Below are positions 1 to 20,761 of a stretch of DNA of 24,855 nt, one piece after another. How positions within the stretch are numbered: the first letter of the stretch is position 1; each line of letters begins with the position of its first letter. The stretch comes from a virus: IMG/VR virus record IMGVR_UViG_3300043436_002199, positions 1 through 24,855 of that record; one strand, given 5' to 3'. The notes beneath the pieces are model-generated. The model was not told the DNA's origin and did not search any database. It worked only from the letters and a program-made list of their open reading frames with translations. The translations under genes were made by a program, and so were the position numbers.

Positions 1-673
1 AAATCAATCCAGGGGCATTTGATTTTCCTTTATATGTATTAAAGAAATTATATATTAATCCAGATACATTTTTTCGATCTTCATTTAGTATACCAGTTAA
101 CCAATGACCAACTGCTAAAAAACACCACGATTCTGAAATATTATCTAATTCTGGAATTCGTTCTGATGCCTTTTGTGCACTTTCCAATTGTGTAGAATAT
201 ACTGATTCTCTAAAATATTCATTAACGACTCGGAGTTTGCATGTAATACCCATGTTATGGGCTTTTGCGGTATTTTCGAATACAGTTTTAGTGAAATGAG
301 ATGGTACTATAACTACATCCATTTTATTAATCGATTCAATCCACTCTTTTGGGCAAACATCGCCCTCTGTTCCAGCAGTTACGCCAATATTGTATTTTCC
401 TACATTTTGAAACTCATTTGGTACTGTAATCTGAACCCAGACTTCTGGCTGTTCATGTAATGGCAATCCAATCATTGCAGTTTGCCAGTGCAGCGGCAAT
501 GGATAAGTAAATGGGGTATGGCCCCATGGCAGCGAAACTAGTTTAATATCCCATTGATTTTCTCCTAATTCGGCTCGTGTCATCAATTCCATTGAGTTTG
601 TGATAAATTCACGCGCGTGGTGCCCATATCCACTTTGTGTTGCTAGTGGCGATGCTATAACTACTTTTCTCAT
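1..673 (-). CDS. Glycosyltransferase, GT-B type, partial (3' end off window)
   Basis: The frame opens with ATG at 673-671 and stays open to the left edge, giving about 224 residues with no stop. The N-terminus (VVIASPLATQSGYGHHAREF) has the glycine-rich first strand-loop seen at the start of GT-B glycosyltransferases. A later stretch around residues 78-130 (EVWVQITVPNEFQ, then VTAGTEGD and VIVPSHFTKTVF) matches the family pattern in which the acceptor domain ends with a 'messenger or guard' segment and a V-P-S-x-F/W loop. The donor-binding C-terminal domain lies outside the window. Its ATG overlaps the stop of the upstream glycosyltransferase as ATGA, so the two are probably translationally coupled. 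The acceptor is unknown: sugar transfer to DNA, virion protein or host glycan are all possible. Confidence 0.75.
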   Translation of the reverse strand, partial: MRKVVIASPLATQSGYGHHAREFITNSMELMTRAELGENQWDIKLVSLPWGHTPFTYPLPLHWQTAMIGLPLHEQPEVWVQITVPNEFQNVGKYNIGVTAGTEGDVCPKEWIESINKMDVVIVPSHFTKTVFENTAKAHNMGITCKLRVVNEYFRESVYSTQLESAQKASERIPELDNISESWCFLAVGHWLTGILNEDRKNVSGLIYNFFNTYKGKSNAPGLI

Positions 674-2154
674 TGTGTGATTCCTATATTTTTATATTGT
701 TTTTTTGTAACCGGTTTAACTACATATCTTGTTGATACCAATGGTTTATACTCAAATAATATATCGATATACCGTTTCATTGATTTCCCCATTTGTTCAG
801 CCGTTAATCCGTTTTCTAAACAAAACGTTCTACCGGTTGCTCCATATTCTAATCGTTTAGTAGAATCCATGTTATACCAATACATGATAGCATTTGCCAC
901 ATCATCAAAATTAACACGGTCATCAAAAATATATGGAGTCATTGGCGATCCTTGTAGTGATCTGTTACTAGGAAATACCGGTTTAACCCATTTGCCATGA
1001 TTTTTATATTTTCCAGCATGGTTGCTTGTAAATTCGCCATTGAAACGAATCCATTCTCCATTTTCGTCTAGAAATCCACATTGATCTTGTAACCCGCCGG
1101 TAACATTATTAATTATCGGAGTACCAGATAACATTGCTTCCGTACTACTTAGTCCCCATCCTTCGTTTGATGCTATATTAACTACCACATCCGCCACGTT
1201 ATACATGGCATTAAGTTCATCTAAGCCTAGTTTCTTATCTGAGAATATAATTTTACACTCAGGAGCAACGGCTTTCCATACGGCCCGTAAATCGGTGCCA
1301 TTTTCATCTGAAATAGCAGTATGTAATAGCAATGCAACTCGATCTTGTTGTTCTTGTGGTAGTCTTGATCTAAATTGTTTGAATGCTAGTATAAGATCGC
1401 CTGGTTGTTTTCTTCTGATATTTCGATTATTCCACATCACAACAAAATCTACATCATGTCCTGTTTTAATATCATTAAACATAGTTTGATAAAGTGGGTC
1501 AGTATCCAATATTGGTTTAAATTTATTATGATTTAGTCCATGTGGTACGAAACTAGTTAATATCGTTTTCGGAGTAATCAAATCAGTTAATGGTTGCTCA
1601 TCCAAGTCAATTACATTGAAATCATTTTGTTTTAATACTTCGTTGTGAATATTATGAGATTGTTTACTAATACCCATGATTAAATCACAACTTCCGTAAA
1701 ATGGCGCGTTCCACATTGGGAAAGGCAAATCATCCCATATGGAATAATAAATAATTGGAATTTCAAATGTATTTTTTAATTCATGTTCTAACGCATATAG
1801 CCAAGTCCAATATCTAGGATCGGTAAAATGTAGTATAGCGTCAGGCTTTTCAGCATTAATTAATGCCATTAAGATATTACGATCTCCATATCCAGACCAC
1901 GGAATAATTTTTACAGATACATCACTAACTCCAGTTTCTTTAGTAATATCCGCAGATACATCTATTCCTTTGCCGTGCTCCGGATGATTTAATGCAGCTC
2001 CTAACTGTACCCAATCATAATGATCAACTGTATTTAATACAATTTCTCGAGATATAGTTCCAATGCCAGATGGCAATCGCAAATCATCTGATAATAATAA
2101 AATCTTGCGTTTCTTTTTACTAAGGGTAGCAGATTCTAGTTCTGGTAATTTCAT
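670..2154 (-). CDS. Glycosyltransferase family 4-like (GT-B), 494 aa
   Basis: This is a full-length GT-B enzyme with two Rossmann-like halves. The N-terminal half begins at residues 17-40 (KILLLSDDLRLPSGIG). The C-terminal half begins near residue 236 (DFVVMWNNRNIRRKQP), which corresponds to the usual 'GR-x-x-x-KN' donor-side strand. The E-x7-E motif of retaining GT4 enzymes is present as E331 and E339 in NEGWGLSSTEAMLSGTP. Family knowledge says such enzymes use nucleotide-activated sugars; substrate and acceptor cannot be read from sequence. A purine-rich AAGAAAGAG lies just before the ATG on the minus strand, and a TATAAT-type promoter lies at 2181-2209. The next gene, another glycosyltransferase, starts inside its stop codon. 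The lysine-rich tail (about residues 470-494) is outside the catalytic fold. Confidence 0.85.
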   Translation of the reverse strand: MKLPELESATLSKKKRKILLLSDDLRLPSGIGTISREIVLNTVDHYDWVQLGAALNHPEHGKGIDVSADITKETGVSDVSVKIIPWSGYGDRNILMALINAEKPDAILHFTDPRYWTWLYALEHELKNTFEIPIIYYSIWDDLPFPMWNAPFYGSCDLIMGISKQSHNIHNEVLKQNDFNVIDLDEQPLTDLITPKTILTSFVPHGLNHNKFKPILDTDPLYQTMFNDIKTGHDVDFVVMWNNRNIRRKQPGDLILAFKQFRSRLPQEQQDRVALLLHTAISDENGTDLRAVWKAVAPECKIIFSDKKLGLDELNAMYNVADVVVNIASNEGWGLSSTEAMLSGTPIINNVTGGLQDQCGFLDENGEWIRFNGEFTSNHAGKYKNHGKWVKPVFPSNRSLQGSPMTPYIFDDRVNFDDVANAIMYWYNMDSTKRLEYGATGRTFCLENGLTAEQMGKSMKRYIDILFEYKPLVSTRYVVKPVTKKQYKNIGITQ

Positions 2155-6943: not shown

Positions 6944-8203
6944 TTAAAATTTAAAGAATTTATTGAATTGGTTGGCGTCAGTAGTAGATATACTATCGCC
7001 GCCAAACTTTTTATATGTCTTTTTATATGATGCATACACATTCATTGCATTGGATGGATCTGCAAACATTTCATACAATGATAATACGACTGTATACAAA
7101 TCATTCGGTATTGCGGTTTCTAATAATTCTATATGGCTATCTGTTAACCGATTAATATCTTTTACCATTTCGCAGTATACGTGTGTATTATGCACTACCA
7201 TTCGTGGCATACCTTCCTGTGAATACCGATCTAAACCAGATGTAGTTTCTCCGCCTAAATATTCATACGTAAAATCATTACAGGCCGGACAGCCTAATTG
7301 ACAAACAACATGTTTTGTCTTATCAATTTCGACAAATCCAGATTTACCTTGTTTAGCGTGAGTTTTACGACGGTATTCAGCATTTTTTGGAAAATATAAT
7401 TCAGTAAATGTCTGTGTCTTATAGTTGCTCGAATGTAAATATGTTCCATATACCGGATATTGCCCTGGGGAAGATGAATCTGACATTAATTGAATTCGAT
7501 TGTCTGTCAGTGTATTTAATAATTTTTGTAATACTCCTAATATAAAGAAATCTGATATTTTACTGATTCCTAGTAAATGTATATACTGCACATGTTTCTT
7601 TTCGAACTCTCGTTCTTTTAACATCAATGCAATAACATACATGAAGTCTACTAATTTTTTAGGACCGCCAATGCACCATCCATTAAAGTCAAAGTCTTTA
7701 AATTTATGATACCAAATAGAGTATTCGTCAGTAAATGTACCTTGTATTACATTTAAAAATTTAGTCTTACCACTTTGATTCTTTTCGAACCACTTAAAAT
7801 TATCAAATGATATATCCATTGCGTCTTGGAAACGATTCTCAAATGTTACTCGGGGCGGTATATCTAAATTTGCTGCAACATCACTGTTCGCCTCTAACCA
7901 ATGAAATATTTTTTCGCGGATTGTGCCGTCCCATTTCAATGCCCCCGTTGCAATCTGGAATCCACCCGAATCTCCGAATACAAATGTCCCATCATCTAAT
8001 CCTAATTGATCTCTAAAATCCATTTTTTTGTAATGATGCCCTGCAGTTACTAAGAAATATGGGTGTCGCCATTTTTCTGGATATTCTTTTGAGAAGAACC
8101 GCATTGTAGTGCCATCAGAAAATTTTGTATCTTTCTTAAATGCAGAAACCATCGATCCTGCTGATAGAGACGGTATATATAAAAACTCTTTCTTATTACT
8201 CAT
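6944..8203 (-). CDS. dpdA: DpdA-like DNA 7-deazaguanine transglycosylase (TGT superfamily)
   Basis: The 419-aa protein has the tRNA-guanine transglycosylase barrel motifs in order: FGDSGGFQ (76-83, base-binding Asp78), LDIPPR (113-118), NVIQGTF (151-157), GWCIGG (175-180), HLLGIS (209-214), and SDSSS (241-245) where the TGT nucleophile aspartate sits (D242). Cysteines C301, C305 and C308 stand where TGT binds zinc. Phage and bacterial DpdA enzymes exchange guanine in DNA for a 7-deazaguanine base; folE, queD and queE in this window supply precursors, which makes a DNA rather than tRNA target likely. Its ATG lies inside the 3' end of the glycosyltransferase gene (8-nt overlap) behind an AAGGA ribosome site. 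The DpdA subtype cannot be assigned by eye. Confidence 0.85.
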   Translation of the reverse strand: MSNKKEFLYIPSLSAGSMVSAFKKDTKFSDGTTMRFFSKEYPEKWRHPYFLVTAGHHYKKMDFRDQLGLDDGTFVFGDSGGFQIATGALKWDGTIREKIFHWLEANSDVAANLDIPPRVTFENRFQDAMDISFDNFKWFEKNQSGKTKFLNVIQGTFTDEYSIWYHKFKDFDFNGWCIGGPKKLVDFMYVIALMLKEREFEKKHVQYIHLLGISKISDFFILGVLQKLLNTLTDNRIQLMSDSSSPGQYPVYGTYLHSSNYKTQTFTELYFPKNAEYRRKTHAKQGKSGFVEIDKTKHVVCQLGCPACNDFTYEYLGGETTSGLDRYSQEGMPRMVVHNTHVYCEMVKDINRLTDSHIELLETAIPNDLYTVVLSLYEMFADPSNAMNVYASYKKTYKKFGGDSISTTDANQFNKFFKF

Positions 8204-9404
8204 GTATTCCTTGTTCGTTTAATAATTGGGTACAATATTCTTTTTCATGCCACACGCATAATTCTTTATCATAGTCATTGGCAATAATGTATCCTTCCAT
8301 TCTACGACCTAAATCTGATGTATCAACTATATCATAATGTGTTTTGGGTGAATCTAATACATCATGAATTGTATCAATTGCTGATTGAACATCAAATGGT
8401 TTATACATTCTGTTAGCATCTATAAATTCTGGAAAGGATCTAAAATTTGGATACACAATATCGGCGCCGAATGCTGTTGCTTCGATAACGGTCCACGATA
8501 CATAGTCTTGTAATGATGTATTAAATTGTATACGACAAGTTGCTAATTCTAAATAATATTCTTCTTTCGTAAGTCCGTTTAATAGTTTGAACCTAGGTTG
8601 GTTTTTTGCTAATTCATACATAGCATCAATTACTCCAGGTAACATTGATCTAAATTCTTTTCCAGATGTTGTCACGTGCCATTCAAAATCTGGTTTTTGA
8701 CTTAAGAATTCTTCTGCTACTTTTAACATGAAGAATGGGTTCTTTTCTTTATCTAACCGAGATGAATACACGATAGTATCTTTCTTTTTAACTATTCCAT
8801 GCGCCGATGCATCTGAATAATTTGGCAATTTATTCAATGTTGCTTCTTTATGTATTGGCAATGATACTACATGTATTGGAGCTTTGAATCCAGCTGCCCT
8901 CAATTGTTCTTTATGGATTGATGACCCAACAAATATGCCGGCCATTCGATTATCAAGTCCCAACTCAAATCCACGCATCCATGATCGCATAGGCCAAGTA
9001 AAATCATATTCATCTACTGACTGTGCATGTAGCATTGCATATATTTTTACATTGATACCATATAGATCCAATGCATATAATATTGATTCAATACCCGGAT
9101 GCCAATAATCTTGTAAAAACAAGACATCGCCGTCTTTTACTTGATCAATATTAAGCATATCTAAAAAGTTGCTACATTGACTCATTGCAAATTTACCGCG
9201 GCCGACTGCATCTAACACAGCTCCAACTTTAATTTGCTGATCCGGATCGAATTCTCCTGGTACTTCTATAAACTTAAGTTTTCCGGCTTTTTCATATGGA
9301 GCAAATGTTGCGGGCATCCATTCTTTTGATAATTGGTATGTGTATCGAGCTTTAAGTGGTTCTAACCCAAAATACCAAACTGTTCTTATGTTTTTATCTG
9401 TCAT
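8196..9404 (-). CDS. Glycosyltransferase (GT-B, GT4-like) coupled to dpdA
   Basis: A 402-aa GT-B enzyme. The donor half begins with IVYSSRLDKEKNPFFML (211-227; R216/K219/K221 in the diphosphate-binding position). The family's second acidic motif appears as VIEATAFGADIVYPN (306-320, E308), followed by E326. The N-terminal half (LFLQDYWHPGIESIL, 95-109) resembles glycosyltransferases that open with a long Rossmann domain. It overlaps dpdA by 8 nt and follows the PTPS-like gene by 5 nt, so it is made together with the DNA-base exchange enzyme. A role in sugar addition to the modified base or its precursor is an inference from position; modification of a virion or host surface molecule is the alternative. 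Confidence 0.8.
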   Translation of the reverse strand: MTDKNIRTVWYFGLEPLKARYTYQLSKEWMPATFAPYEKAGKLKFIEVPGEFDPDQQIKVGAVLDAVGRGKFAMSQCSNFLDMLNIDQVKDGDVLFLQDYWHPGIESILYALDLYGINVKIYAMLHAQSVDEYDFTWPMRSWMRGFELGLDNRMAGIFVGSSIHKEQLRAAGFKAPIHVVSLPIHKEATLNKLPNYSDASAHGIVKKKDTIVYSSRLDKEKNPFFMLKVAEEFLSQKPDFEWHVTTSGKEFRSMLPGVIDAMYELAKNQPRFKLLNGLTKEEYYLELATCRIQFNTSLQDYVSWTVIEATAFGADIVYPNFRSFPEFIDANRMYKPFDVQSAIDTIHDVLDSPKTHYDIVDTSDLGRRMEGYIIANDYDKELCVWHEKEYCTQLLNEQGIHE

Positions 9405-11987: not shown

Positions 11988-12632
11988 TTAAACAAATTCT
12001 ATGAATTGAAAAGTAATACTATCCTGCATTCCAATATTTGTTTCTATTTCCTCTTTACCTGTTGTATTACTAATATAATTCCATTCGGAAGTTTTAGGGA
12101 AATTACCCAATATCACATTTTGACCGTTTAAAACTTGTATAGACGAAATACCGCCGTTATCTGACAAAATGCCATTATACTTGCCAGGCCGAATCTTCCC
12201 CATACTGGTTAATGTTATAACCCCGGTTTCACCACCAATCTTTATCTTTGCTTTAATTGGGGTACTGTTGTTCATATCATCGTTAAATTTGGAAAATTGG
12301 TCAGAATTATATTCTTCTTTAAGATTTGTAGTATCTAAGTATTTAAATAATTTGCTGGCGCTATATCGTTGGATGTCTGGTGTTTCGTCTGCAGACATTC
12401 TGAGTTGATTATATAAGCGTATTAAATTTGTATCGCCGCTATTATAAACTTCAGTATAAAAATCACCTAATTCAGCAAGAATAGTATCAGTCATATTTTC
12501 ACCACGAGCACCGCCATCCATGATGTCTTTTACAGTTTCGGTGAAATCTGAATTAGTTTTAATGTTTTCTTTAAGATTTTTAGTACCAAATCTTCTCATG
12601 TTTTCTGCTAGTAAATTTTTCATACGTATCAT
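11988..12632 (-). CDS. Unknown protein with capsid-targeting-like N-terminus, 214 aa
   Basis: The body matches no family I know. The N-terminus MIRMKNLLAENMRRFGTKNL is shared with the next gene (330 aa) and has L8-A-E10 and L20-K-E22, the (L/I)-x-E form cut by T4 gp21-type proteases. Residues 25-110 look helical and acidic (DIMDGGARGENMTDTIL, YTEVYNSGDTNLIRLYNQL). Residues 125-205 look like a beta domain (IKIGGETGVITLTSMGKIRPG). The two proteins differ completely after the shared start. A second ATG at 12623 (MKNLL) is a possible start, but the first keeps Glu at position 10 as in the other members of the set. Confidence 0.75.
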   Translation of the reverse strand: MIRMKNLLAENMRRFGTKNLKENIKTNSDFTETVKDIMDGGARGENMTDTILAELGDFYTEVYNSGDTNLIRLYNQLRMSADETPDIQRYSASKLFKYLDTTNLKEEYNSDQFSKFNDDMNNSTPIKAKIKIGGETGVITLTSMGKIRPGKYNGILSDNGGISSIQVLNGQNVILGNFPKTSEWNYISNTTGKEEIETNIGMQDSITFQFIEFV

Positions 12633-16900: not shown

Positions 16901-17677
16901 TTAAACTCCTCTTTTAGTATCGAATGCAATAATATGATCTCTTCCCGTCATATTGTAACCCTTCTCAGCACACATATCAAATACAAGTGGATACATTTCA
17001 ATTAATGTTTCTCTAGTATCTCCTGCGGGCATAATATATGTTTTGTCTTTTGGGATATTAAGTAGAGTGCGAATGTTTTCAATTTCTTGTAGATTCTTGT
17101 CCGTTCCATCCCATACTGGTTTGAAATGATAATCCGTATGGAAGTGAATCATCTGGCTCATTGTAGCAAGCTTCATTCTAAACTTGTTATGTTGATCAAT
17201 CATTCTTTGATCTACAATCGCTCCTTGAGGCGTAACAGCACCGAGTACGGGTACAGAATTACCAAACTTTGGACTGAGAGATATAAGGCCAATAGGATAG
17301 TCGGTAGGTACGAAATGGCTACCTTCAGTTTCAATAGTAATGAGTATATCTCTTTCATTTGCAAAATGTGTTAGTTCATTTACAAGTGCAGGATGCATTG
17401 TGGGGCTTCCGCCGGTTAACATCATCTCTTTAATGTGTGGGTTCTCGTCATAGATCTTAATAATGTCGTTAAACGTGAATATTCCTTTCTCGGGATGAAT
17501 ACTTGTATACCACGAATCACACCATCCTCCTTCACCGAAGAAGCATCTGTGAGTACATCCGGTTGTGCGTACTGCAATTGTGGGTCTTCCAAATCTAGAG
17601 CCTTCACTTTGAACACATCGATATAATTCAACAACAGGCAATACTTTATTGTAATCTTCTATTCTGTTATTCTTCAT
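16901..17677 (-). CDS. queE: 7-carboxy-7-deazaguanine synthase (radical SAM), QueE
   Basis: A 258-aa radical SAM enzyme. VQSEGSRFGRPTIAVRTTGC (22-41) is the QueE hallmark start, with the substrate-binding QSEG and the first cluster cysteine. The cluster cysteines are spaced C41-x3-C45-x7-C53 rather than the standard C-x3-C-x2-C, because FFGEGG is inserted before WCDSWY. The SAM-binding GGEP motif appears as MLTGGSPTMHP (85-95), and TIETEGSHF (about 114-122) follows the family pattern. QueE converts 6-carboxytetrahydropterin to 7-carboxy-7-deazaguanine. It overlaps queD by 11 nt and is third in folE-queD-queE order, the pathway order. Confidence 0.9.
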   Translation of the reverse strand: MKNNRIEDYNKVLPVVELYRCVQSEGSRFGRPTIAVRTTGCTHRCFFGEGGWCDSWYTSIHPEKGIFTFNDIIKIYDENPHIKEMMLTGGSPTMHPALVNELTHFANERDILITIETEGSHFVPTDYPIGLISLSPKFGNSVPVLGAVTPQGAIVDQRMIDQHNKFRMKLATMSQMIHFHTDYHFKPVWDGTDKNLQEIENIRTLLNIPKDKTYIMPAGDTRETLIEMYPLVFDMCAEKGYNMTGRDHIIAFDTKRGV

Positions 17678-18143
17678 ATATACTTGAATTATTATCGTTT
17701 TCGAAACATTCTACTTTAATACATTTGCATCTACCAGCATCTGTTTTAGATAAAACGTCATTGAACTTATCAAATACTAATTTAGCACAAGATTCAGCTC
17801 CCATTTTATCCATAACCCGTAAAGCACAAATACCCTCCATTGCCATAGTTTCAAACAAATCTAAATATGGATCATCCTTTTCAATTAACAATGTATGATC
17901 CCACATATGGTTCATCCAATCTTTTAGACCATTTCCGTTAGGTGGTGTTTTGAATCCACCGTAGTCAACAATCCAATGCATATCATCTAGTTGTTTGTCG
18001 ATGTCAGGTACCTCTGAGGCAAACCATACTTTAAATTTAAGAGCATATCCATGAAGTAGCTCACAATGCGAATGCGATGCTCGCCATTGTCTAAGTGCTA
18101 CCGAATAGTTGTCGAATAGTTTAGTTGAAATATATCTAGCCAT
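17667..18143 (-). CDS. queD: 6-carboxy-5,6,7,8-tetrahydropterin synthase, QueD
   Basis: A 158-aa protein of the QueD subfamily that has RQWRASHSHCELLHGYALKF (18-37): catalytic Cys27 in C-x3-HG, with HGY in place of the classic HGH. WIVDYGGFK (57-65) matches the family 'v-D-F-g-x-L-k' block, followed by WDHTLLIEKDDP (81-92). KCIKVECFEN near the end supplies the conserved glutamate strand. QueD converts dihydroneopterin triphosphate to 6-carboxytetrahydropterin. It shares one base with folE (TAATG) and overlaps queE by 11 nt, so the three are made together. Confidence 0.88.
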   Translation of the reverse strand: MARYISTKLFDNYSVALRQWRASHSHCELLHGYALKFKVWFASEVPDIDKQLDDMHWIVDYGGFKTPPNGNGLKDWMNHMWDHTLLIEKDDPYLDLFETMAMEGICALRVMDKMGAESCAKLVFDKFNDVLSKTDAGRCKCIKVECFENDNNSSIYEE

Positions 18144-18844
18144 TAATTATAACCTTTAATAAATTGATAAAATTCTGATCGGGCATTACCATCATCTAGA
18201 AACACCCCCGATAGTTTTGCAGTTTTCATTGAAGCTCCTCGATGCTTAACACCTCTACAAGATACACAATTATGTGTTGCTTCAATCATTACAGCAACTC
18301 CTTTATTATCTGAAATAAGTTCATTGACTGCATGCTGAATTGCAACTGTTAACTGTTCTTGAATTGCCCCACGTCTACCAAAATGTTCAACAACCCGATT
18401 CAATTTACTTAATCCAACTACATTTCCGTTTTCTGCCGGAATATATGCAATGTGGCACAGTCCTTCAATGGCTTGATGATGGTGGCTACACATGGATGTT
18501 AATGGAATGCCTCCTTCAAACACGATGCCATCATATCCGTCACTAGGGAACGATGTAATATCTGACATTGGTTCATATCGACCTCGCCATAAATCATTAA
18601 CATATGCTTTAGCAACTCTGTTCGGAGTATTGTCTGAGTTTGGATCTTGTTCCCATGCAACGCCTAATGCTCGGAGAAATTCTCCATAATAAAATGCAGC
18701 ATCTGTAATGATGGCTTGTTTTTCTTCTGCAGTTAGTTTGGCATCTGCACCGAACATGGCTTGTTTAGTTGCTAGCTGCGTTGATATGCCGTTAGCAAAC
18801 CCAGCATCAACTAGCTCTAAGTTTTTTCGTTGTTTGTTTGTCAT
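18143..18844 (-). CDS. folE: GTP cyclohydrolase I, FolE
   Basis: A 233-aa enzyme with NTPNRVAKAYV (72-82), SMCSHHHQAIEG (117-128; zinc ligands C119 and H122), VVGLSKLNRVVEHFGRRGAIQEQLT (142-166) and HNCVSCRGV (191-199; third zinc ligand C193). All catalytic regions of GTP cyclohydrolase I are present. It makes dihydroneopterin triphosphate from GTP, the first step toward 7-deazaguanine. It is preceded by a good promoter at 18872-18900 and followed by queD and queE. The N-terminal 40 residues form a helix that differs from the bacterial FolE start, a normal variation. Confidence 0.95.
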   Translation of the reverse strand: MTNKQRKNLELVDAGFANGISTQLATKQAMFGADAKLTAEEKQAIITDAAFYYGEFLRALGVAWEQDPNSDNTPNRVAKAYVNDLWRGRYEPMSDITSFPSDGYDGIVFEGGIPLTSMCSHHHQAIEGLCHIAYIPAENGNVVGLSKLNRVVEHFGRRGAIQEQLTVAIQHAVNELISDNKGVAVMIEATHNCVSCRGVKHRGASMKTAKLSGVFLDDGNARSEFYQFIKGYN

Positions 18845-18903: not shown

Positions 18904-19320
18904 TTATATAAACATAATCCGCGAAAATATATGTCCTGGTAAACTTTCTCGCAAGTATTTTTGTGTAAATTTAAGTGCTGTGATACTCGTTATACTATCT
19001 TCGATGTTCGATATATCTCCGGAGTCTGAAACCCATTCTTGTTCATGTTCAAATGTTTCACCTGGTGCTCCGGGGTATATATACGGAGATAATGTAGGTA
19101 AATCATCACTACTAAATTCTAACCTAACCCCAATTTCATCACCTGATTCAAATTCCTGAAAAGACCATAAATTTTCATCATCTGTAAATGAAACATATTT
19201 TCCCATTGCCGATTTTAATTTGTTAGAATTTATGATGCCTACAAGACCAGGAGCAGTTGTGAAATGATATACTATGTTAGGATAATAATTATTTTCGAGT
19301 AATTGTTTTAATCGTATCAT
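18904..19320 (-). CDS. ADP-ribosyltransferase-like protein with capsid-targeting-like N-terminus
   Basis: The 138-aa protein starts MIRLKQLLEN (L7-L-E9), the shared N-terminal form. The body then reads IVYHFTTAPGLVGIINSNKL (16-35), KYVSFTDDENLW (41-52) and FEHEQEWVSDSGDIS (90-104). H19 in 'YHFT', the 'SFT' strand and a late E-x-E pair (E93, E95) follow the pattern of compact ART-like domains (H-Y-E or R-S-E class), in which the last Glu is catalytic. T4 injects the ADP-ribosyltransferase Alt with its DNA, so an ART packaged through its N-terminus would have a known parallel. The call is by pattern only, and activity cannot be judged. It has its own promoter (19338-19366) and the 20-nt leader repeat. 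Confidence 0.5.
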   Translation of the reverse strand: MIRLKQLLENNYYPNIVYHFTTAPGLVGIINSNKLKSAMGKYVSFTDDENLWSFQEFESGDEIGVRLEFSSDDLPTLSPYIYPGAPGETFEHEQEWVSDSGDISNIEDSITSITALKFTQKYLRESLPGHIFSRIMFI

Positions 19321-19332
19321 ATTAATAAATAT
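19306..19332 (-). repeat. Leader repeat, copy 1 (start of ART-like gene)
   Basis: Minus strand ATATTTATTAATATGATACG with the next seven bases ATTAAAA is identical over 27 nt to 20735-20761. It spans the start codon: 12 nt of leader and the first five codons. Confidence 0.9.
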
Positions 19333-19374: not shown

Positions 19375-19408
19375 TTACATGGTTGGATCGCCTGGAGTAT
19401 CTATACCA
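19375..19408 (-). repeat. 3'-end repeat, copy 1
   Basis: The last 34 nt of the ParB-like gene match 20330-20363 at 30 of 34 positions by eye. They encode the shared tail GIDTP-x-(D/N)-PTM and the stop. Confidence 0.85.
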
Positions 19409-19824
19409 GTCCAATCGAATTTTGTGGTATTTGAATTTTTCGCTTGAACTAAATTTACTTCAATTTTTGAATTTCCGAGTGCCCAATTAGCTACGAGTCT
19501 ATGATGGCCGTCGAATATTGCCATTTCGCCATCCTCAAATTCAACTACGTTTATTGTAGATAATTTATTCAAACTAGATAGTATTGTTTTTACTTTGTTA
19601 CTTTGAATGTTTGGTTGTGTTATGTGTATATCTTTTAAAGAAATGAGTTGAAGCCTGCCATTATCTTTATTTTTTTCGAACGCTTCTATTACATCACTCC
19701 AACTGCGACGACTTTTATTAAAAATGCTTTCTATATTTTTGGCATCATTAAATAATTTGCCTGTTGGTAATTCATCAATTTTATTATCAAATGTTTCAAT
19801 TAGTAAATTCTGAAGTCGTATCAT
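19375..19824 (-). CDS. ParB/Srx-fold protein with capsid-targeting-like N-terminus
   Basis: I chose the ATG at 19824 (MIRLQNLLIE), one base past the DUF5522 stop, over the first ATG at 19839, since it reproduces the start of two sister genes. The 149-aa product has L8-I-E10 at the N-terminus, then LQLISLKDIHITQPNIQ (59-73), IDVV-type strand INVVEFEDGEMAIFDGHHRLVANWALG (91-117), with the DGHHR box at 105-109. That is the signature of the ParB N-terminal/sulfiredoxin fold, where the GxxR/GHHR loop binds a nucleotide. The tail FDWTGIDTPGDPTM is repeated in the papain-like gene. Function might be CTP- or ATP-dependent DNA binding, nicking or phosphotransfer; none can be proved here. Confidence 0.6.
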   Translation of the reverse strand: MIRLQNLLIETFDNKIDELPTGKLFNDAKNIESIFNKSRRSWSDVIEAFEKNKDNGRLQLISLKDIHITQPNIQSNKVKTILSSLNKLSTINVVEFEDGEMAIFDGHHRLVANWALGNSKIEVNLVQAKNSNTTKFDWTGIDTPGDPTM

Positions 19825-19836
19825 ATTAATAAATAT
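19817..19836 (-). repeat. Leader repeat, copy 2 (start of ParB-like gene)
   Basis: The same 20-nt ATATTTATTAATATGATACG as copies 1 and 3. Here it overlaps the last codons and stop of the upstream DUF5522 gene, so it has been kept inside coding sequence. Confidence 0.9.
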
Positions 19837-20047
19837 CATTTACCGTAGTATTACCCTTTACATGTGCGGGTTCATACGGACAATGCATGCATCCGTTTCC
19901 ACAGCAAGAACCTCGACGTACGTGATATGTTGCAGTCATCACTTTGCGACCGTCTTTATCATAATAAAAATCAACAGGAAGGAGCTTGTTTCCAAACTCC
20001 TTCACATACTGTTGATAAATCCAATCGTTTGACAGATTGATGATCAT
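19826..20047 (-). CDS. DUF5522-type cysteine-rich small protein
   Basis: The 73-aa protein has the block HVRRGSCCGNGCMHCPYEP (about 42-60), matching the 'kRG-x-CCGsGCrHCPY' core of DUF5522 proteins, with four clustered cysteines (CC, C, C) able to hold metal. The family is of unknown function and, as far as I know, common in Bacteroidota, consistent with such a host. It starts two bases before the histone-like gene ends and its stop is embedded in the leader repeat of the ParB-like gene. Confidence 0.75.
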   Translation of the reverse strand: MIINLSNDWIYQQYVKEFGNKLLPVDFYYDKDGRKVMTATYHVRRGSCCGNGCMHCPYEPAHVKGNTTVNDIY

Positions 20048-20329: not shown

Positions 20330-20363
20330 TTACATGGTTGGATTACATGGAGTATCTATTCCA
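20330..20363 (-). repeat. 3'-end repeat, copy 2
   Basis: Partner of 19375-19408; it encodes the shared GIDTP-x-(D/N)-PTM tail of the papain-like gene. Confidence 0.85.
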
Positions 20364-20749
20364 GATGCATCGTATTTTGTTTTTTGAATATTAGTGTAAA
20401 ATTCGGCATCCAGCCACGCAGTGCCATATTTTTTTATAAATCGTTGAAAAAATGGTAAATTTGTTAACTCAGTAGTACCATTTAGCATTTCAGCATCATA
20501 AAATTTATTTCCTAACTTTACCCATGAATGTCCACTTGGGTCATTTGGAAAGTCAAAAGACCATTGATGATCTCCTCCAAACCGTTCCATGAATAATGAT
20601 GCCCATATATCACAATAACCATTGTTAATTTCTTGTGGAGTTAATGATTTGTAATCTTCTCTATACTCATCATTTATCCTGGCAATTAATTCAGATTGAA
20701 AATTGTTATCAATACGAGACTCTTTCAATATGTCTTTTAATCGTATCAT
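20330..20749 (-). CDS. Papain-like cysteine hydrolase candidate with capsid-targeting-like N-terminus
   Basis: The 139-aa protein starts MIRLKDILKES (L8-K-E10). The body has NNGYCDIWASLFMERF (42-57, C46), PSGHSWVKLGNKFYDAE (71-87, H74 and D85) and a helix KKYGTAWLDAEF. A Cys in a helix start, a His before a 'W-V-K-x-G' strand and an Asp in 'YDAE' is the order of papain/NlpC/transglutaminase-like hydrolases. The tail YDASGIDTPCNPTM matches that of the ParB-like protein. It follows the ribonucleotide reductase gene after the leader repeat, with no visible promoter of its own. Peptidase, deamidase or transglutaminase are all open; only the triad layout is seen. Confidence 0.5.
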   Translation of the reverse strand: MIRLKDILKESRIDNNFQSELIARINDEYREDYKSLTPQEINNGYCDIWASLFMERFGGDHQWSFDFPNDPSGHSWVKLGNKFYDAEMLNGTTELTNLPFFQRFIKKYGTAWLDAEFYTNIQKTKYDASGIDTPCNPTM

Positions 20750-20761
20750 ATTAATAAATAT
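20735..20761 (-). repeat. Leader repeat, copy 3 (start of papain-like gene)
   Basis: Identical over 27 nt to 19306-19332 and over 20 nt to 19817-19836. Confidence 0.9.

What the first reader, a model, noticed from the sequence alone, without database searches (positions are those of the whole stretch)
18904..19320. Candidate packaged ADP-ribosyltransferase smaller than T4 Alt
The 138-aa protein joins the capsid-targeting-like start to an ART-like core (YHFT, SFTDD, late E-x-E). T4 Alt, also packaged and injected, modifies host RNA polymerase. This would be a far smaller enzyme with the same logic.
Basis: inference. Interest (0 to 1): 0.55.

Follow-up and report, generated by a model that had tools for sequence, protein, structure and literature searches.

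The report
Tagged small phage ADP-ribosyltransferase cargo
A virus of bacteria, distantly related to T4, appears to carry a very small enzyme of the ADP-ribosylating kind with a T4-style head-loading tag, inside a gene slot where different enzymes swap in behind the same tag; head loading and enzyme activity are both still to be tested.

Summary
The ORF is real (minus strand, 138 aa) and constrained (dN/dS 0.165-0.179). Its predicted fold is ADP-ribosyltransferase (ART): Foldseek ranks 1-23 are ART-superfamily entries, best E 0.03; VIA-align Z up to 9.4. Iterative search from the core alone joins it to a wider phage family with [YFW]-H-x-T and E-x-E motifs. The conserved Glu pair is E91/E93, not E93/E95, and the target has Asp where relatives have Arg after S-x-T. 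Its start (MIRLKQLLE) is a tag shared with unrelated proteins and resembles T4's capsid-targeting/gp21 site; a gp21-family protease occurs in 9 of 13 related records. New here: the tag sits behind an identical DNA box (ATATTTATTAAT-ATG), and several tagged neighbours share a C-terminal tail (GIDTPGDPTM) around swapped cores (GNAT, ParB-like, ART). Packaging, cleavage, NAD use and target are inferred. Head-packaged ARTs are known (T4 Alt) and proposed widely (PMC9503650).

The parts
18904..19320 (-). target gene: 138-aa tagged ART-like protein
19294..19320 (-). N-terminal tag MIRLKQLLE (L-L-E, candidate gp21-type cleavage after E9)
   Evidence: cleavage inferred
18964..19272 (-). ART-like core, residues 17-119: YHFT motif I, SFT motif II, E91-x-E93 motif III
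19321..19332 (-). conserved DNA box ATATTTATTAAT directly before the ATG
   Evidence: box+ATG three times in the window, 0 expected from shuffles
19375..19824 (-). neighbouring tagged gene (MIRLQNLLIE) with weak ParB-like similarity and the C-terminal tail; in relatives the gene next to the target is a longer ART (L003-L005, L022) or a GNAT (L001/L017)
   Evidence: best ParB-named PHROG E 3.6e-4, Pfam ParBc_2 E 0.034
19825..19836 (-). DNA box before the ParB-like gene
19378..19425 (-). C-terminal tail TKFDWTGIDTPGDPTM
20330..20749 (-). tagged gene (MIRLKDILKE) with C-terminal tail GIDTPCNPTM; core looks papain/transglutaminase-like by eye only
   Evidence: no Pfam hit up to E 1
20750..20761 (-). 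DNA box before that gene
20333..20380 (-). C-terminal tail TKYDASGIDTPCNPTM
11988..12632 (-). tagged gene MIRMKNLLAENMRRFGTKNL, core unknown, no exact box

Best explanation
The gene makes a minimal ADP-ribosyltransferase carried in the phage head. Steps: (1) the N-terminal tag MIRLKQLLE places the protein in the prohead core; (2) a T4-type gp21 protease cuts after E9, leaving about 129 residues; (3) the enzyme travels with the DNA into the next host; (4) it transfers ADP-ribose from NAD to a host macromolecule, using H19 and the E91-x-E93 pair, to blunt a defence or redirect host functions. It is one item of an exchangeable cargo slot between a ribonucleotide-reductase gene and folE, in which different cores sit behind the same DNA box and tag. 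Shown: the gene and its constraint, the tag and box, the varying slot, the family motifs, gp21-family proteases in related records. Predicted: the ART fold. Inferred: packaging, cleavage, injection, NAD use, target.
For: Fold: AF2 model pLDDT 66.9, pTM 0.68; Foldseek ranks 1-23 of 145 matches are ART-superfamily entries (by title, some by recall), rank 24 is unrelated; VIA-align Z 9.4, rmsd 2.6, 93 aligned to Tpt1 8tg6, and 47 of the 50 rows shown are Tpt1/KptA, DarT or ART-toxin entries, the other 3 being CC0527 (184 chains had Z of 2 or more). The longer relative (pLDDT 74.4) matches Tpt1 7yw4 at Foldseek E 5.7e-5 and Z 10.6, and DarT at Z 8.3. Family: jackhmmer from the core alone (inclusion E 0.01) gathers 27 of 4447 distinct ORFs from the 153 loci held. 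His in 26 of 26 rows that cover motif I, second Glu of motif III in 26 of 26, E-x-E spacing in 25 of 26 (28 rows, one a copy of the query). Tag enrichment. PF03420 in 9 of 13 and gp23 in 10 of 13 related records. In Mel-JY01 the only two strict-tagged genes are both of this ART family, one of them a 60-aa piece; in Slickus01 five genes share their own LYESLLEEG-type start, three confirmed as family members and two by eye; both phages have PF03420, while in Dickeya JA29 no PF03420 was found and its two family members have no tag. Selection.
Against: No virion proteomics or assay. Foldseek best E is 0.03 with no match at 0.001, and model confidence is middling; the tool warns that Z under 8 can be a common arrangement, and 12 of 971 chains reach 8. 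Pfam never reaches its cut-off; HYD1 hits 6 of 14 members, but Cas9_C (E 0.00098) and Ank_4 (E 0.0022) also hit 2 members each. The target subfamily has Asp or Glu where every other row that covers it has Arg after S-x-T, and lacks the Arg that most relatives have after E-x-E, so activity may be altered or lost. At the T4 cleavage position 9 of 10 related gp23 loci read [LI]-V-x-E, so they do not meet the strict T4 motif L/I-x-E. The tag also sits on a lysozyme-like protein (L221), which need not be an injected effector. A T4-type late promoter (TATAAATA, up to 1 mismatch) is not enriched before tagged genes: window 2 of 4 v 13 of 29, G001 4 of 14 v 72 of 184, G006 1 of 11 v 38 of 186. In one contig (L022/L123) the target orthologue has an in-frame stop and the longer ART is frameshifted, so they may be dispensable. 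I found no head genes in the window and it is a fragment.
Confidence: 0.52

Rival explanations
1. It has the ART fold and is packaged, but is no transferase: a catalytically dead or NAD-binding decoy (or NADase) derived from the longer tagged ARTs, acting by binding.
For: The Arg after S-x-T is replaced by Asp or Glu in the target and its orthologues; a longer ART sits next door in several relatives and keeps this Arg.
Against: Y18, H19, T21, S44, T46, R66 and E91 are invariant in 15 rows and E93 nearly so, and dN/dS is about 0.17.
Confidence: 0.2
2. It is an ART expressed in the infected cell, not packaged; the MIRLxxLLxE start and DNA box serve expression or recombination rather than head targeting.
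For: The box touches the ATG and is identical before many different genes; the slot lies among DNA-metabolism genes; AcrIF11 shows an ART used inside the cell against CRISPR (PMC12421852, passages).
Against: The tag matches the T4 capsid-targeting layout (PMC9026906, section 2.5 and passages of 2.6; T4 gp24 starts MAKINELLRES), and tagged genes without the exact box exist: window 11988-12632, and by the list only 3 of 14 tagged genes in G001 and 0 of 11 in G006 have it.
Confidence: 0.25
3. It is an RNA 2'-phosphotransferase (Tpt1/KptA)-like RNA repair enzyme, the closest fold match.
For: Tpt1/KptA chains head the Foldseek list.
Against: No KptA family among Pfam hits up to E 1; the acidic E-x-E is not a recalled feature of Tpt1, whose core uses Arg and His (recalled).
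Confidence: 0.05

Closest known systems
Bacteriophage T4 Alt
   Same: ART (here predicted) of a T4-type phage with a short N-terminal propeptide; Alt is packaged, injected and ADP-ribosylates host RNA polymerase (PMC9026906, passages and section 2.5)
   Different: 138 aa against 682 aa (coordinates); no detectable sequence similarity; different gene neighbours; Alt is also processed at its C-terminus
T4 internal proteins IPI-IPIII and their capsid targeting sequence
   Same: Short N-terminal tag with residues 4, 7, 8 and 10 important, on otherwise unrelated cargo (PMC9026906 passages of section 2.6; PMC3012670 passages)
   Different: T4 IPs inhibit type IV restriction enzymes (PMC12373910, passages); here some cores are enzyme-like, and a DNA box and a C-terminal tail are shared as well
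Tox-ART-HYD1 (PF15633)
   Same: Best Pfam hint for the target (E 0.0085, residues 17-46) and a weak hit for 6 of 14 family members
   Different: 17.1 bits, below the cut-off of 25; described in polymorphic toxin systems (PMC3482391, passages)
Tpt1/KptA and DarT
   Same: Closest solved folds
   Different: Other catalytic residues (recalled); tag not examined in them
AcrIF11
   Same: Phage-encoded ART (PMC12421852, passages); small by recall
   Different: Not compared by sequence or fold here; the passages read mention no head tag

Membership tests
ART superfamily | ART fold (split beta-sheet core, PMC9503650 section 3.3.1) | tested here: met
   predicted model only, Foldseek best E 0.03
ART superfamily | motif I His (or Arg), recalled | tested here: met
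   H19, 26 of 26 rows that cover it
ART superfamily | motif III Glu, recalled | tested here: met
   E93 in 26 of 26 rows that cover it; E91-x-E93 spacing in 25 of 26
ART superfamily | NAD pocket and NAD-dependent transfer | not testable with these tools
Tox-ART-HYD1 (PF15633) | score above the curated cut-off | tested here: not met
   17.1 v 25 bits
Tox-ART-HYD1 (PF15633) | signature H, [RK], [FY], [DE] (PMC3482391 passages) | tested here: inconclusive
   H and E present; the Arg after S-x-T is Asp in the target but Arg in longer relatives; positions not aligned to the HYD1 model
T4 Alt family | detectable sequence similarity to Alt | tested here: not met
   tblastn of the target against 50,697 phage records, no match at E 1
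T4 capsid-targeting sequence | short N-terminal tag, hydrophobic at 4/7/8, L/I-x-E near residue 10 | tested here: met
   MIRLKQLLE, Glu at 9 rather than 10; enrichment; layout from PMC9026906
T4 capsid-targeting sequence | cognate gp21-type protease in the phage | tested here: inconclusive
   PF03420 in 9 of 13 related records, not in the 40-kb fragment that carries an orthologue of the target; the window is a fragment
T4 capsid-targeting sequence | drives head entry and is cleaved | not testable with these tools
   needs virion mass spectrometry
Tpt1/KptA | Arg/His catalytic set (recalled) | tested here: inconclusive
   fold match only; no residue-level alignment available
AcrIF11 | sequence or fold similarity | not tested
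   no direct comparison made

The most novel reading that the evidence does not exclude
The slot is a general cargo-loading cassette: a fixed 5' module (DNA box plus head-targeting tag) and, in many genes, a fixed 3' module (a 16-residue tail) let the phage group exchange cores by homologous recombination, so that each phage loads its head with its own set of small proteins, many of them enzymes, ARTs forming the second largest group. 85 distinct box-plus-tag ORFs of 60 aa or more fall into 31 core groups, and two fused genes show a join inside the tail (L062, L065/L152).
Probability: 0.45. Interest if true: 0.75.

Novelty: new variant of a known kind. Interest (0 to 1): 0.6.

Why it matters
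If right, T4's mix of Alt and internal proteins is one case of a broader habit: phages loading small, swappable proteins behind a short tag. The tag and box give a simple sequence rule for finding candidate head cargo in uncultured phages, and a working ART of about 129 residues after cleavage would be a very compact one. A sequenced phage with a named host and tagged genes of this family exists (Microcystis phage Mel-JY01), so the idea can be tested.

Tried and rejected
DNA-pattern scan for YHFT..FTDD: 10 stretches, 5 on contigs already known and 5 not relatives (checked). Scan of viral contigs with alignment A1 added one new contig. Genome-contig scan with A4: 23 candidate stretches, none a relative at E 1e-3, on a single peptide pattern, so bacterial relatives are not excluded. 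Sequence search of solved structures gave nothing useful for the target or the family. T4-type late promoter before tagged genes: not enriched. PHROGs gave no match better than E 0.13 and NCBIfam none up to E 1 for the target. jackhmmer from a full tagged and tailed ART (L085) drew in 54 ORFs, many unrelated in the core, through tag and tail; the family was therefore built from the target core alone. Papers naming Mel-JY01: none in the library. Searches for an earlier description of tagged ARTs of this kind listed work on packaged phage ARTs, capsid targeting and phage genomes; two searches showed 20 of 27 and 20 of 57 papers. Six papers were opened: PMC9026906 (passages; section 2.5 whole), PMC9503650 (passages; section 3.3.1 whole), PMC12373910, PMC12421852, PMC3482391 and PMC3012670 (passages only). 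Internal counts for G006 differ between (977; 975), probably through tie-breaking in the gene lists. The box census is partly circular, since fetched loci by the box itself (96 stretches, 80 listed); (34 distinct ORFs, 32 with tag or tail) was made before that scan, on loci fetched by the target, folE, ART and tail searches and on the pieces of G001 and G006.

Full report
The finding. The 138-aa ORF at 18904-19320 is on the minus strand, between folE (18143-18844, Pfam GTP_cyclohydroI) and a weakly ParB-like ORF (19375-19839). The window is a 24,855-base virus record. The best match to its DNA polymerase among annotated phages is Microcystis phage Mel-JY01 at 45% identity; the next rows are T4-like cyanophages at about 30%.

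Is it a real gene? Orthologues stand at 85-86% in five contigs and 72% in a sixth; dN/dS is 0.165-0.179 against three of them. In the 72% contig an in-frame stop breaks the gene and the neighbouring longer ART is frameshifted, while folE and the reductase gene there are open.

Is it an ART? Pfam gives only a sub-threshold Tox-ART-HYD1 hint (E 0.0085, 17.1 against 25 bits). In several relatives the neighbouring gene is a longer protein with YHYT, SFTRD and EAEER motifs. Iterative search from the target core alone, without tag or tail, links both and adds proteins of Mel-JY01, Dickeya phage JA29 and Alishewanella phage Slickus01 (inclusion threshold E 0.01). In alignment A3 (15 rows) Y18, H19, T21, I29, S44, T46, R66, P79, F90 and E91 are invariant and E93 nearly so. 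In the wider alignment motif I reads [YFW]-H-x-T; His is kept in 26 of 26 rows that cover it, the second Glu of motif III in 26 of 26, and one row (L133) has a two-residue insertion between the Glu residues (28 rows, one a copy of the query). The target and its orthologues have Asp or Glu where every other row that covers the site has Arg after S-x-T. The model (pLDDT 66.9, pTM 0.68) finds ART-superfamily chains at Foldseek ranks 1-23, rank 24 being unrelated and none reaching E 0.001; VIA-align gives Z up to 9.4, and of the 50 rows shown 47 are Tpt1/KptA, DarT or ART-toxin entries and three are CC0527. The longer relative (pLDDT 74.4) finds Tpt1 at E 5.7e-5 and DarT below it, unrelated rows starting at rank 20; VIA-align gives Z 10.6 and 8.3. 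Pfam hits on 14 family members are all weak: HYD1 in 6, Cas9_C and Ank_4 in 2 each.

Is it tagged for the head? T4 capsid-targeting sequences are 10-19 residues, with residues 4 and 7 important for targeting and 8 and 10 for processing; gp21 cuts after L/I-x-E (PMC9026906, section 2.5 and passages of 2.6). The tag here, M-I-R-L4-x-x-L7-L8-(x)-E, fits; in the target the Glu is at 9. T4 gp24 starts MAKINELLRES. Strict tag at N-termini v internal Met: window 4 of 33 v 0 of 172, G001 10 of 198 v 2 of 882, G006 10 of 197 v 0 of 975, Mel-JY01 2 of 227 v 0 of 983, Slickus01 0 of 184 v 0 of 879, Dickeya JA29 (60 kb) 0 of 53 v 0 of 366, T4 (34 kb) 0 of 57 v 0 of 178. So the strict form does not catch T4's own cargo in the stretches looked at, nor the Slickus01 genes; it describes this phage group. 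The two in Mel-JY01 both belong to this ART family, one being a 60-aa piece. Slickus01 has five genes with a different shared start (LYESLLEEG type): three were family members and two look so by eye. PF03420 is in 9 of 13 related records, in Mel-JY01 and in Slickus01 but not found in JA29, whose two family members have no tag. At the position of T4's gp23 cleavage, ten related gp23 loci read [LI]-[VL]-x-E, nine of them with Val at the third-last place, which is close to the tag but misses the strict T4 motif; the alignment there is gappy.

The slot. The three genes at 18904-19320, 19375-19839 and 20330-20749 share the box ATATTTATTAAT directly before ATG (3 matches, 0 expected), and the last two share the tail (2 matches, 0 expected). 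In relatives, genes behind the same tag include a GNAT (Acetyltransf_7 31.0 against 27 bits), ParB-like proteins, ARTs and others, many with the same tail. The GNAT has Asp at tag residue 10; in T4 IPIII an Asp there allows targeting but blocks processing (PMC9026906 passage). Before the box scan, 32 of 34 distinct ORFs after box+ATG had tag or tail; after it, 90 of 99 distinct ORFs were tag-like, and the 85 of at least 60 aa formed 31 core groups, among them a phage lysozyme. The box is not universal: by the list only 3 of 14 tagged genes in G001 and 0 of 11 in G006 have it. G006 has seven tagged genes in a row, one the longer ART.

Mechanism and limits. The most likely reading is an ART loaded into the head by the tag, trimmed by gp21 and injected, to modify a host target. 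Packaging, cleavage, NAD use and target are not shown. Promoter analysis did not support T4-type late expression. The loss of the S-x-T-R Arg leaves open a dead or altered enzyme.

Relation to the known. Iyer and colleagues describe ARTs in 30% of the myoviruses they surveyed and place about 44% of phage ARTs in contexts that suggest head packaging (PMC9503650, section 3.3.1 and passages). Capsid targeting of a diverse set of internal proteins by a shared short sequence is T4's (PMC9026906, PMC3012670). What I did not find in print, by the searches named under Tried and rejected, is this small ART family with the shared tag, box and tail.

Noticed in passing
window 16901-18844 (-): A radical SAM gene (QueE-like by eye; 27.0 bits, below the cut-off of 29.5), a PTPS gene (QueD-like) and GTP cyclohydrolase I in a row: a preQ0-type set, suggesting 7-deazaguanine chemistry.
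   Followed up: partly
window 6944-8203 (-): 419-aa ORF that looks like a DpdA/TGT-like base-exchange enzyme by eye only; no Pfam or PHROG hit at 1e-5.
   Followed up: partly
window 670-2154 and 8196-9404 (-): Two group-1 glycosyltransferases above the Pfam cut-off.
   Followed up: no
L022/L123: The target orthologue has an in-frame stop and the longer ART is frameshifted, while folE and the reductase gene are open; assembly error or loss.
   Followed up: no
L062:5238-5930, L065:2690-3421: Two cargo cores fused, the join lying in the TKYDAS part of the tail: looks like a recombination scar.
   Followed up: no
L182:8612-13164 (G006): Seven tandem tagged genes, one the longer ART, in a 165.6-kb record.
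   Followed up: partly
L213:7304-13266 (Slickus01): Five genes with a shared LYESLLEEG-type start in Alishewanella phage Slickus01, three of them members of the ART family; annotated as hypothetical where seen.
   Followed up: partly
L263:12352-12723, L271:3816-4406, L244:2779-3435: Three further box-plus-tag proteins that look like other ART types by eye; no Pfam hit at 0.01.
   Followed up: partly
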